This document shows, piece after piece, positions 2,017 to 8,175 of a stretch of DNA of 64,000 nt. The notes beneath the pieces were generated by a model. The model saw only the letters and a list, made by a program, of their open reading frames with translations. It searched no databases and was not told where the DNA came from. Source of the DNA: Bradymonas sediminis (lineage in GTDB: Bacteria > Myxococcota_A > Bradymonadia > Bradymonadales > Bradymonadaceae); contig NZ_CP030032.1 in the NCBI RefSeq assembly GCF_003258315.1, positions 2,643,804-2,707,803 on the forward strand, in the 5' to 3' direction. A program made the translations under genes and the position numbers. Position 1 is the first letter of the stretch. Every line of letters begins with the position of its first letter.

Positions 2017-3360
2017 TCAGGGCGCGTAGGGCTTGAAGTCGACCTTCTTCTTTTTGAGGGTCGCTTCAAGCTTTTCTATTTCTTGGAGCGCCTCGGCGTC
2101 GCTGGGGCTCAAGGAGAGCGCGCGCGACAGGCTATAATGGGCCTTCGCCAACTCTTCGGAGGTCGCCCGCTTATTCTTCATCGTGCGGCTAGCCTCATTC
2201 TTGAGGTTATACACCAGGGTCTTCTCGACGTGGGCGAGGATGGATTTGGAGCGCTCGTGGGCCACGGTGCCCTCGGCGATATCGAGCAGAATGCTGCGCG
2301 CCTGCTCGTGGCGCCCCTGGGCGCTGAACTCCTCGCCCTGGCGCAGAAGCTCAGCGGCCTTCTGCTCGCGATAAGCACGGTCCTGGAGTTCCTGGGCTTC
2401 CTGGTTACCCGGGGCCAAGGCCAGGGCCTCGTTGGCAAATGACAGCGCCCCGGGCCACTCGTGGCGCCGAAGATTATCGTTGCCCGCGCGCAACGCCGCG
2501 GCGACCCGCCCCTCGACTGAATCCGGCGCCACCGCGTTGACCTGCGATGTGGGCACGTCGTTGGGCTGCATGACGAAATAAATCACCGATGCGGCGACGA
2601 CCACGCCCACGCCGAGCGCGAGGTACGCCAGCATATTATTCGCGCTATTTCCGCTGCGCGCCGCGACCTTCTGGGGCGCATAGGCCGCCACATTCACAAT
2701 CTCGCCGCCCTCGGCGAATACGAATTGGATATCGCCAAACTCGACGACATCCGAGGGCTCAAGGGTCCGCGCCCCGCGCAGCGGCTTGCCGTTGAGGCGC
2801 GTGCCGTTGGAGCTCTCAAGGTCGACGACCGTATAGGAATTCCCCGAGCGAATGATCTTGGCGTGGCGCCGGCTGATGGAGGAGTCCGACAATAGGATGA
2901 AATTCTCGTCGGTGCGCCCGATGGTATTCTCAATCTCCGAGAGGCTAAACTCCTCGCCGGCAAAGGCGTCGTTGATGCGCACCAATTTATGGTGGTCGGA
3001 GCTATCGGAGATGAACAGCGTGTTCAACACGCTCTGGCTGGCGTCCTGCTGGGCCTTAAACTCGACATAGAGGTAGAAATCGCCGACCCGAATCTGGCTG
3101 GCGGTCCCCAAATCGCGCCGCTGAATCACGCGTTGGCCGTCGACAATCACCCCGTTGGCGCTGCCCATATCCTCGATAAAGCAGCGGCCGTTCTCAATAA
3201 AGATGCGGGCATGCTGGCGGCTTACGCTCGTGGAGGGCAATACAATATCGCATTCGTCCAACCGCCCGATCACGTAGGAGCCGTGATCAAAGGAAAACTG
3301 GTCGACAATCTGGGTATTGCTGTCTTCGACGGTCAGCGTGAACATGGTTTCAATACGCAC
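2017..3360 (-). CDS. Two-FHA-domain membrane protein with C-terminal TPR-like region
   Basis: Two forkhead-associated domains are visible: residues about 25-105 (YVIGRLDECDIVLP, SVSRQHARI) and about 135-215 (NTIGRTDENFILL, SISRRHAKI, SSNGTRLNG). Both keep the GR, SxxH and NG residues used for phosphothreonine binding. A single membrane span follows at about 243-267, then a Glu/Ala/Leu-rich helical region that looks like TPR-type repeats. The product should hold cytoplasmic phosphopeptide readers on a membrane anchor with a helical extracytoplasmic part. It lies 48 bp downstream of the FHA-CpaF gene on the same strand, so co-transcription is likely. The start is GTG at 3360 or ATG at 3345; neither has a strong Shine-Dalgarno. 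Its stop codon sits in a small hairpin loop (2010-2025). Confidence 0.8.
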   Translation of the reverse strand: MRIETMFTLTVEDSNTQIVDQFSFDHGSYVIGRLDECDIVLPSTSVSRQHARIFIENGRCFIEDMGSANGVIVDGQRVIQRRDLGTASQIRVGDFYLYVEFKAQQDASQSVLNTLFISDSSDHHKLVRINDAFAGEEFSLSEIENTIGRTDENFILLSDSSISRRHAKIIRSGNSYTVVDLESSNGTRLNGKPLRGARTLEPSDVVEFGDIQFVFAEGGEIVNVAAYAPQKVAARSGNSANNMLAYLALGVGVVVAASVIYFVMQPNDVPTSQVNAVAPDSVEGRVAAALRAGNDNLRRHEWPGALSFANEALALAPGNQEAQELQDRAYREQKAAELLRQGEEFSAQGRHEQARSILLDIAEGTVAHERSKSILAHVEKTLVYNLKNEASRTMKNKRATSEELAKAHYSLSRALSLSPSDAEALQEIEKLEATLKKKKVDFKPYAP

Positions 3361-3408
3361 TAATCAGGGGTTTAATACCACAAACTTCTGCACTCGGGCG
3401 CAACCCGA

Positions 3409-5790: not shown

Positions 5791-5907
5791 CAGGTCGCGA
5801 AACGTTGCTTATTTGAAAAGACGCTCCATCGTGGCAAACTTAGCCGGTGGGCATTTCCACCCGTGGCAACCGAGTTTGCGACGCACGCGCTGTAATGAGA
5901 GTCAAAA

Positions 5908-8175
5908 TTGGCTGATGAAATCGACAATCCGGCGGGCGGTGACACCAATCCGTCCTTTGGCAAAAAGGACAGCGCCGACCCGGTGGTGTCCGACGTAGCC
6001 TCGGCGCAGCCCGGCTCCCCCACCCCGGAGTCCGAGCCCAAAGTCGTCAAGATATGCAAAACCTGCATGGTCTCCCAGAGCGGCGTGGGCGGGTATTGCG
6101 TGAGCTGCGGCAGCGCCTTGGTGCCGATCCGCGCGGTGCGCGAGACCTATGTCGGCGAGGTCGTCGGCGGAAAGTATAAGATCGTCGATCGCCTTGGCGC
6201 CGGCGGCATGGGCGAGGTGTACTTAGGCGTCAATGAACCCCTGGGCCAACAGGTCGCGGTGAAGTTCTTGAGCCAGAAATTCACCGCCGATGAGAATATC
6301 ATCCTGCGCTTCCTCAACGAGGCGCGCTCCTATTGCAAGGTGACCCACCCCAACGCGGTGACTCTGCTCGAATACGGCCAGCACGAAGACGGCGCCCTCT
6401 ACCTCATCACCGAATTCATCGACGGAAAGAGCCTCAGCGACACCCTTAAAGACGTCGGCCCCTTCCCCTTGGACCAGGTGATTTCGATCAGCACCCAGAT
6501 CTGCGAGGTCCTCTCGGCCGCCCACGGCCAGGGGGTCATCCACCGGGATCTAAAGCCCGACAATATCATGCTGATGCCGACCTCGCGCGGGCGCTACGCG
6601 GTCAAGGTGCTCGACTTCGGCATCGCCAAGATCATGGACGACGACCACGCCAACGGCGCGATGACCGAGACCGGCTCGGTCTTCGGCACCCCGGAGTTTA
6701 TGTCCCCCGAGCAGGCCTGTGGTGACAGCACCGACGGGCGCTCGGACCTGTACGCCGCGGGCATTATCCTCTTCTATCTTGCCACCGGAAAGCTGCCGTT
6801 TAAGGGAAAGAACAAGCTCGTCGTCCTGCACAAACAGCTGCACGAAGCGCCGCCGCTGCCCTCGGAGGCGCGCGACGACATCACCGTGGTGCCCGAGCTT
6901 GAGCGCATCATCCTAAAATGCCTGCGAAAGGCGCCCGAGCAACGCTTTCAGAGCGCGGATGAATTGCTCGGCGCGCTGGAGGCGATCGACACCTCTCATG
7001 TGCCTCGGATCCCGCGCCCCAACGCGGCCGTCGGCGTCTTTCAGGACACCAACCCGGAGTCTCCCCACGCGCACGATAGCATCGAGACCGTCGTGCAGTC
7101 GGACCTGACGCCGCACTCCAAAGATAGCGCCCCGGAGTTTCGCGGCATAACGGCGCCGCGGGTGACCGCCGATCTCGAGGAATTGGGCGACTTCAGCCAC
7201 GAACATGAGCCGAGCTTTGCCGGCGCGTTTTCAGACGCCCCGCCCTTCGCCGACGAGGTTGAGCCCGACTCGCTGGGCATGCCAAACGGCTGGGATCAAG
7301 ACGGCGCGCTTTACGGCGTCGAGGACTCATCGCGAACGCGCAATCTCATCATCGGGGTCGGCCTGGTCGCGCTGATCGCTGGGGGCGCGCTCTGGCTCAA
7401 TTCGGGCCCTACGGCCGAGGACTCGACCGCTGCGGGCAGCGAGGTCGCCCAGGTCGACCACGCGCTGCTCACCGGCCAGGTGCTCGGCTCACTCGCCGCG
7501 GCCCAGGACAGCGTCAACCACGCCGACTTCGCCTCGGCCCAGCGCGCCGTGGCGAGCACCTACCGGTGGATTGAGGACGCAGATCTGGCGGAGGATGCGC
7601 GCGTTAAGCGGGTCGCGCTCAACGCAAAGATCGAGCGACTGATCGAGCTGGACACCGCATTCTCGTCGGCGCTCAACAAGGGCGATTGCACGCGGGCGGG
7701 CAAGATCATCAAGACCATGAGCGCGGTTGAAGCCAGCGTGGAGCGCGTGCGCGCCGGGGCATTGGCGGAGTGCAAGGCGTCGGTGAAGTCTCCGCTGCCC
7801 GCGAAGCCGGCGCCTGCACCGGCTCCCCCCGCCGAAGAACCCGCGGCAGCGCCCATTCAGCCCGCGCCCGCACCCCAGCCGCCCGCGCCAGTCGAAGCGG
7901 CGCCGAAGCCCCCGGAGGTTGCGCCCGAGGAAGCCCCCGTCGCGACGCCGCCGAGCCCCGAGCCGGCCGATTCACCCGACAGCCCCGCGCCGAGCAGCGA
8001 TGCGCCGGGCGCCGAAGCACCTGAGACGCCCACGAGCGAAGCGTCGCGCCTCGATGAGGTCATGCCCGAGCTGAATAAGCCCGACGCCGCGACCGGCGAA
8101 GATGAAGACGAGGAGAGCCCCGAAGAGGCCGACCCGGAAGAAGGCTTCGCCCTTCCCCCCAAGACCATCGACTAG
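5908..8175 (+). CDS. Zinc-ribbon Ser/Thr protein kinase with one membrane span
   Basis: A CxxC-x10-CxxC zinc ribbon (Cys50, 53, 64, 67) precedes a complete Hanks-type kinase domain (about 88-365): glycine loop GAGGMGEVY, catalytic Lys119, HRDLKPDN around Asp214, DFG at 236-238 and the SPEQ activation segment. One membrane helix lies at about 475-497. The extracytoplasmic part is helical, then Pro/Ala/Glu-rich and strongly acidic at the end. All catalytic residues are present, so it should be an active kinase. The start is TTG, with no in-frame ATG nearby and only a weak ribosome-binding site. It is divergent from two FHA-domain genes, which are natural readers of phosphothreonine made by such a kinase (inference). 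A strong terminator follows. Confidence 0.92.
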   Translation: MADEIDNPAGGDTNPSFGKKDSADPVVSDVASAQPGSPTPESEPKVVKICKTCMVSQSGVGGYCVSCGSALVPIRAVRETYVGEVVGGKYKIVDRLGAGGMGEVYLGVNEPLGQQVAVKFLSQKFTADENIILRFLNEARSYCKVTHPNAVTLLEYGQHEDGALYLITEFIDGKSLSDTLKDVGPFPLDQVISISTQICEVLSAAHGQGVIHRDLKPDNIMLMPTSRGRYAVKVLDFGIAKIMDDDHANGAMTETGSVFGTPEFMSPEQACGDSTDGRSDLYAAGIILFYLATGKLPFKGKNKLVVLHKQLHEAPPLPSEARDDITVVPELERIILKCLRKAPEQRFQSADELLGALEAIDTSHVPRIPRPNAAVGVFQDTNPESPHAHDSIETVVQSDLTPHSKDSAPEFRGITAPRVTADLEELGDFSHEHEPSFAGAFSDAPPFADEVEPDSLGMPNGWDQDGALYGVEDSSRTRNLIIGVGLVALIAGGALWLNSGPTAEDSTAAGSEVAQVDHALLTGQVLGSLAAAQDSVNHADFASAQRAVASTYRWIEDADLAEDARVKRVALNAKIERLIELDTAFSSALNKGDCTRAGKIIKTMSAVEASVERVRAGALAECKASVKSPLPAKPAPAPAPPAEEPAAAPIQPAPAPQPPAPVEAAPKPPEVAPEEAPVATPPSPEPADSPDSPAPSSDAPGAEAPETPTSEASRLDEVMPELNKPDAATGEDEDEESPEEADPEEGFALPPKTID

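What the first reader, a model, noticed from the sequence alone, without database searches (positions are those of the whole stretch)
2017..8175. FHA-CpaF fusion, dual-FHA membrane protein and zinc-ribbon kinase form one candidate phospho-relay
An FHA domain is fused to a CpaF-type secretion ATPase beside a second FHA protein and a divergent Ser/Thr kinase. No tad/pilus genes are nearby. FHA domains read phosphothreonine and CpaF ATPases drive secretion or pili. A kinase-gated secretion motor without its own channel genes in the neighbourhood would be unusual. Seen: domains and order. Inferred: that they interact.
Basis: partly seen in the sequence, partly recalled or inferred. Interest (0 to 1): 0.65.

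Follow-up and report, generated by a model that had tools for sequence, protein, structure and literature searches.

The report
FHA-tagged ex-motor protein pair
Two neighbouring genes, a pilus-motor-like protein carrying a phosphate-reading (FHA) domain and a membrane protein with two such domains, form a pair kept across the phylum Myxococcota, but in most relatives the motor half has lost the residues it needs to burn ATP while the phosphate-reading half is strongly preserved, so the pair looks like a signalling scaffold rather than a kinase-driven secretion engine.

Summary
In detail: FHA–CpaF fusion (3409-5556, -), dual-FHA membrane protein (2017-3360, -) and a Ser/Thr kinase (5908-8175, +); no other Tad-type gene was found in the window. 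The three-gene unit is not real. The two FHA genes are a tight same-strand pair in 19 of 20 family relatives and in 33 further loci across Myxococcota. The kinase is beside them in none of the 20 relatives, although 17 carry its orthologue elsewhere. FHA–CpaF fusion itself is known ("class III" CpaF; KilF of the Kil predation system), and this genome has a separate KilF locus 2.4 Mb away. The window protein belongs to another lineage. There the FHA domain is more conserved than the ATPase (the reverse of KilF), phosphothreonine-binding residues are near-invariant, and Walker A, Walker B Glu and the His box are eroded in nearly every lineage except the window's clade. At least 23 genomes have the pair but no canonical CpaF. 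The pair often adjoins a TolC-like/MlaC operon. Best reading: a CpaF-derived phosphothreonine-responsive scaffold with a membrane-anchored dual-FHA partner, not a kinase-gated secretion motor. The window copy keeps its catalytic residues, so ATPase activity there remains possible. Function is inferred, not tested.

The parts
3409..5556 (-). FHA-CpaF fusion protein, 715 aa (orphan lineage, distinct from KilF)
5272..5556 (-). N-terminal FHA domain; G26 R27, S41 K42 H44, N63 G64 invariant in family orthologues
3412..4524 (-). CpaF/VirB11-like core (N-terminal domain plus RecA-like ATPase domain)
   Evidence: the fold of a degenerate orthologue matches CpaF
4003..4029 (-). Walker A GPAGAGKTT, intact here; lost in most lineages outside the core family clade
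2017..3360 (-). Dual-FHA membrane protein (start more likely 3345 by alignment), 48 bp downstream of the FHA-CpaF gene as called
3052..3345 (-). FHA domain 1 of the membrane protein
2707..2991 (-). FHA domain 2 of the membrane protein
2566..2634 (-). single predicted transmembrane segment
   Evidence: sequence; low-confidence region of the model
2050..2523 (-). C-terminal helical, TPR-like region, presumably on the far side of the membrane
   Evidence: topology inferred
1381..2004 (+). MlaC-like periplasmic protein, convergent neighbour kept at this locus in 28 inspected genomes
1..1281 (+). TolC-family outer-membrane protein (3' part; the gene starts upstream of the window)
5908..8175 (+). 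Zinc-ribbon Ser/Thr kinase with canonical catalytic motifs; neighbour in this genome only, not shown to belong to the pair

Best explanation
The two minus-strand genes encode a Myxococcota signalling pair. A CpaF-derived ring-type protein carries an N-terminal FHA domain, and its partner is anchored in the inner membrane with two cytoplasmic FHA domains. The FHA domains bind threonine-phosphorylated proteins produced by Ser/Thr kinases encoded elsewhere, and so assemble or position a multivalent complex at the inner membrane, probably acting on an envelope machine near the TolC-MlaC operon. In most lineages the CpaF half has become a catalytically dead scaffold; in the window's clade the catalytic residues are still present, so nucleotide binding or hydrolysis may still modulate it. 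Shown by sequence: the pair, its conservation, the FHA binding residues, the motif erosion and the absence of partner Tad genes. Inferred: phosphothreonine binding, ring assembly, membrane recruitment, link to the envelope operon.
For: Pair adjacent, same strand, gap -109 to +219 bp, in 17 family loci as assembled (two more across or at contig ends; 19 of 20 relatives) and 33 loci elsewhere in the phylum. FHA contact positions near-invariant phylum-wide in both proteins. Mean pairwise identity, orphan core versus phylum: FHA 51%, ATPase 27%, FHA higher in 98% of pairs; in KilF the ATPase is always higher (69% versus 46%). Walker A absent from 4 of 4 deep family members and 46 of 48 other orphans, all 16 KilF intact; in Caulobacter CpaF the Walker A K287A mutant has no ATPase activity (PMC12019362). 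The orphans separate from the KilF/TadA clade (100/99). In 23 of 34 genomes the orphan is the only CpaF-like protein. A degenerate Polyangium orthologue is still modelled with the CpaF fold (Z 30.9 to 8rjf) plus FHA.
Against: The window's own copy and 15 close relatives keep Walker A, and nearly all keep Walker B Glu and the His box, so a pure scaffold reading may not hold here. No phosphoprotein partner is identified. A regain of catalytic residues in the core clade cannot be excluded. The TolC/MlaC adjacency is missing in many loci, and the phylum loci were picked through hits of the dual-FHA profile, which favours finding the pair.
Confidence: 0.5

Rival explanations
1. The FHA-CpaF is an energising motor or ATP-dependent switch for an envelope complex built around the adjacent TolC-like, MlaC-like and SppA-like proteins.
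For: TolC/MlaC genes lie beside the pair in 15 family loci and 13 loci in other families; in L061 (SppA-TolC-MlaC-CpaF-FHA2) and L116 (CpaF-FHA2-TolC-MlaC) they are co-directional in two different orders. The window copy has intact catalytic motifs.
Against: Catalytic motifs are lost in lineages that keep the adjacency (e.g. L105, L107, L117, L137); adjacency is absent in about half of the inspected loci outside the family.
Confidence: 0.2
2. The FHA-CpaF is an alternative or regulatory motor of the Kil/Tad machine encoded elsewhere in the genome.
For: The genome has a full Kil-like locus with its own FHA-CpaF (KilF) at 203 kb; KilF is also an FHA-CpaF fusion (PMC8460266); the window ATPase has intact motifs.
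Against: 23 of 34 genomes with the pair have no other CpaF-like protein; G003 has the orphan alone; G002 and G005 have KilF but a dead orphan.
Confidence: 0.15
3. One reading: the adjacent zinc-ribbon kinase phosphorylates or gates the FHA-CpaF in one three-gene relay.
For: Adjacency in this genome; both kinase and pair occur across the family; FHA-kinase partnerships such as PknB-GarA are established (6i2p, hit).
Against: Kinase next to the pair in 0 of 20 relatives; unlinked orthologues in 17; the genome encodes at least 15 strong kinase matches.
Confidence: 0.07

Closest known systems
KilF of the Kil predation apparatus (Myxococcus xanthus; Seef et al. 2021, PMC8460266)
   Same: FHA domain fused to a CpaF-type ATPase; FHA proteins as neighbours; Myxococcota/Bradymonadales
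   Different: KilF sits with a secretin and other Tad genes, keeps all catalytic motifs (16 of 16) and conserves its ATPase over its FHA; the window protein is a separate lineage without Tad genes
Class III CpaF (FHA-IDR-CpaF; PMC12019362)
   Same: domain order FHA, disordered linker, CpaF core
   Different: described as Tad pilus motors, mostly betaproteobacterial; catalytic loss and the dual-FHA partner were not found in the passages read
GarA/OdhI-type FHA proteins
   Same: best solved-structure matches of the membrane protein's FHA domains
   Different: GarA/OdhI are small soluble inhibitors with a self-phosphorylated tail; this is a membrane protein with tandem FHA domains and a helical tail
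TagH-type (T6SS) or YscD-type (T3SS) FHA proteins
   Same: FHA domain in a secretion-related protein; sub-threshold profile matches
   Different: scores below the curated family cut-offs for TIGR03354 and TIGR02500; genome not searched for T6SS/T3SS genes

Membership tests
CpaF/TadA secretion ATPase | T2SSE/VirB11-type domain | tested here: met
   PF00437 above cut-off, TIGR03819 best NCBIfam match though below its cut-off
CpaF/TadA secretion ATPase | Walker A Lys, Walker B Glu, His box | tested here: met
   met in the window protein; not met in 46 of 48 orthologues outside the family for Walker A
CpaF/TadA secretion ATPase | encoded with Tad platform, secretin and pilin genes | tested here: not met
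   no platform gene within the window, no Kil-gene relatives; none at orthologous loci
KilF (Kil system) | FHA-CpaF fusion | tested here: met
KilF (Kil system) | falls in the KilF clade | tested here: not met
   KilF plus TadA3 clade 100/99 excludes all orphans; the genome's own KilF is at C1:203 kb
Phosphothreonine-binding FHA domain | conserved G-R, S-[RK]-x-H, N-G residues | tested here: met
Phosphothreonine-binding FHA domain | measured binding to a pThr peptide | not testable with these tools
   needs a binding assay
Kinase-FHA relay (three genes) | conserved linkage of kinase with the FHA pair | tested here: not met
   0 of 20 family loci; unlinked orthologues

The most novel reading that the evidence does not exclude
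A phylum-wide phosphothreonine-reading scaffold made by converting a pilus/secretion ring ATPase into a pseudoenzyme that works with a dual-FHA membrane partner and without any Tad machinery: the secretion motor fold reused for signalling, with one clade keeping (or regaining) catalysis.
Probability: 0.45. Interest if true: 0.7.

Novelty: new variant of a known kind. Interest (0 to 1): 0.52.

Why it matters
FHA–CpaF fusions are read as phospho-controlled pilus motors. Here is a widespread lineage in which selection has kept the phosphate reader and let the motor chemistry decay, in genomes without the pilus machine. If confirmed, such genes should not be annotated as Tad ATPases; ring-ATPase folds join the pseudoenzymes used as scaffolds; and kinase-rich predatory bacteria gain a concrete, testable phospho-reader at the envelope. 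The intact copy in the window's clade gives a natural active-versus-dead comparison.

Tried and rejected
Three-gene relay: rejected as a conserved unit. Window FHA–CpaF as KilF: rejected by the tree and by the separate KilF locus. I first labelled the gene before TolC 'MlaD'; Pfam shows an S49 (SppA-like) peptidase, so it is not a full Mla transporter operon. Simple coupling of ATPase intactness to KilF presence: rejected (G002 and G005 have KilF and a dead orphan). Opp-type ABC transporter genes upstream in some relatives: not consistent, ignored. Phylum-wide search with the FHA–CpaF profile failed twice on the server, and two earlier relatives searches failed, so no unbiased count of orphan FHA–CpaF genes exists. 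Searches of the held papers found no report of this pair; that library lacks most subscription journals.

Full report
OBSERVATION. The protein of 3409-5556(-) has an FHA domain at its N-terminus, a long low-complexity linker and a CpaF/VirB11-type core; 2017-3360(-) has two FHA domains, a hydrophobic segment and a helical, TPR-like tail; 5908-8175(+) is a Ser/Thr kinase with an N-terminal CxxC..CxxC pair. The kinase keeps VAVK, HRDLK, DFG and SPE, so it is not divergent in its catalytic core. The only secretion-type ATPase in the window is this one, and there is no T2SSF platform gene in it.

THE HOST GENOME. The window lies in a complete 5.05-Mb genome. The genome holds three CpaF-type ATPases: the window protein; a KilF-like FHA–CpaF at 203 kb in a locus with CpaB-, secretin-, TadB- and TadC-like genes and an FHA membrane protein; and a 398-aa TadA-like protein at 3.01 Mb. 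Kil loci in Bradymonadales, with Bradymonas sediminis as the example, were reported by Seef et al. 2021 (PMC8460266).

CONSERVATION. In 20 relatives of the family, orphan FHA–CpaF orthologues were found in all 20. The dual-FHA gene follows on the same strand in 17 as assembled, plus two at contig ends (G002, G014), and is missing in G003. The kinase is next to the pair in none, by ORF search and by tblastn. Instead 17 relatives have a clear kinase orthologue (340 bits or more; next-best matches 247 bits or less) elsewhere, for example about 0.42 Mb away in G001 and about 0.58 Mb in G013. A profile of the dual-FHA protein then found relatives across the phylum; of 40 such loci, 33 have a non-KilF FHA–CpaF gene directly upstream on the same strand, 1 is a real Kil locus (L115) and the rest lack a CpaF or run off the contig. 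These loci were chosen by the FHA profile, so the fraction is not an unbiased estimate. Named genomes with the orphan FHA–CpaF include Polyangium sp. y55x31 and Polyangiaceae/Sorangium MAGs; in Myxococcus and Citreicoccus the hits are the Kil locus, with secretin, KilF and FHA genes side by side.

WHAT SELECTION KEEPS. Across the phylum the FHA positions G26, R27, S41, K42, H44, N63, G64 of FHA–CpaF, and G32, R33, S47, R48, H50, N69, G70, G148, R149, S163, R164, N185, G186 of the partner, are invariant or nearly so. The ATPase half decays: Walker A GxxxxGK[ST] is present in 16 of 16 core family members but 0 of 4 deep family members and 2 of 48 other orphans (these two are L121 and L168, probably the same gene; the 48 also include a few other duplicates between collections); Walker B Glu and His box follow the same trend, but some f12 genomes keep both while lacking the Walker Lys. 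All 16 KilF proteins are intact. Identity comparisons reverse between the two lineages: orphans conserve FHA over ATPase in 95-98% of pairs, KilF never. In Caulobacter CpaF a Walker A Lys-to-Ala change abolishes ATPase activity (PMC12019362). The tree separates orphans from KilF/TadA (100/99). With an intact ancestor, several independent losses are needed; equal-cost parsimony would instead allow one loss and one regain. Residual Walker B and His residues in f12 argue for several losses, but this is not settled.

INDEPENDENCE FROM TAD. In 34 genomes carrying the dual-FHA gene (nearly all with the pair), a KilF query finds the orphan alone in 23, nothing at that threshold in 3, a short extra piece in 1, and a canonical CpaF in only 7. 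Many are incomplete assemblies, but 27 separate omissions are unlikely. In the family, G003 has only the degenerate orphan, whereas G002 and G005 have KilF and a degenerate orphan. The orphan therefore does not depend on the Kil/Tad machine.

STRUCTURE. A model of the degenerate Polyangium orthologue has a well-predicted FHA domain and CpaF core; the core aligns with CpaF over 403 residues at Z 30.9, with large rmsd (9.5 Å), as expected for a flexible two-domain protein. The window's dual-FHA model gives two FHA folds nearest GarA/OdhI and a confident all-helical tail; the segment around the membrane helix is low-confidence.

NEIGHBOUR OPERON. An S49 peptidase, a TolC-family protein and an MlaC-like protein run convergently toward the pair in the window and in most family genomes; TolC and MlaC flank it in 13 loci of other families too. 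In L061 and L116 pair and operon are co-directional in two different orders. This suggests an old functional link to the envelope but is absent from many loci.

MECHANISM. Best-supported: a phosphothreonine-responsive scaffold made of a CpaF-derived ring-type protein and a membrane-anchored dual-FHA partner (0.5). The window clade may add ATP hydrolysis. Rivals: motor of the TolC/MlaC envelope complex (0.2), auxiliary Kil motor (0.15), local kinase relay (0.07). No step of the mechanism has been measured.

NOVELTY. The FHA–CpaF architecture is known (class III CpaF, KilF). What appears new is the separate, mostly catalytically dead lineage, its fixed dual-FHA partner and its independence from Tad genes. 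No description was found in the held papers, which are not the whole literature.

Noticed in passing
L021:9110-12376 (G000:C1 3011609-3014875); L229, L230, L231, L232, L233, L234: A third CpaF-type ATPase (398 aa, no FHA) is followed by a kinase-fold protein whose catalytic motifs look degenerate by eye (no HRD, no DFG). This CpaF-pseudokinase pair is kept in all 6 relatives checked and lies about 15-19 kb from kilF in several (coordinates), so the conserved CpaF/kinase-like linkage of this family is here, not in the window.
   Followed up: partly
L018:4811-12807 (G000:C1 about 200311-208307): A Kil/Tad-like locus (CpaB-, secretin-, KilF-, TadB-, TadC-like and an FHA membrane protein) in the same genome, matching the Bradymonadales Kil loci reported in PMC8460266.
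   Followed up: partly
window 10460-12862 (-): 800-aa protein with an RNA polymerase alpha-CTD-like helix-hairpin-helix and a sigma-70 region 4-like segment; function unclear.
   Followed up: no
window 20088-21533 (-) and 33224-34798 (-): Two further Ser/Thr kinase relatives in the window; the whole genome gives 35 FHA matches and at least 15 strong kinase matches.
   Followed up: no
L061:5102-11696 and L116:3678-9349: TolC/MlaC genes and the FHA pair arranged in one direction in two different orders in distant genomes, a good starting point for testing the envelope link.
   Followed up: partly
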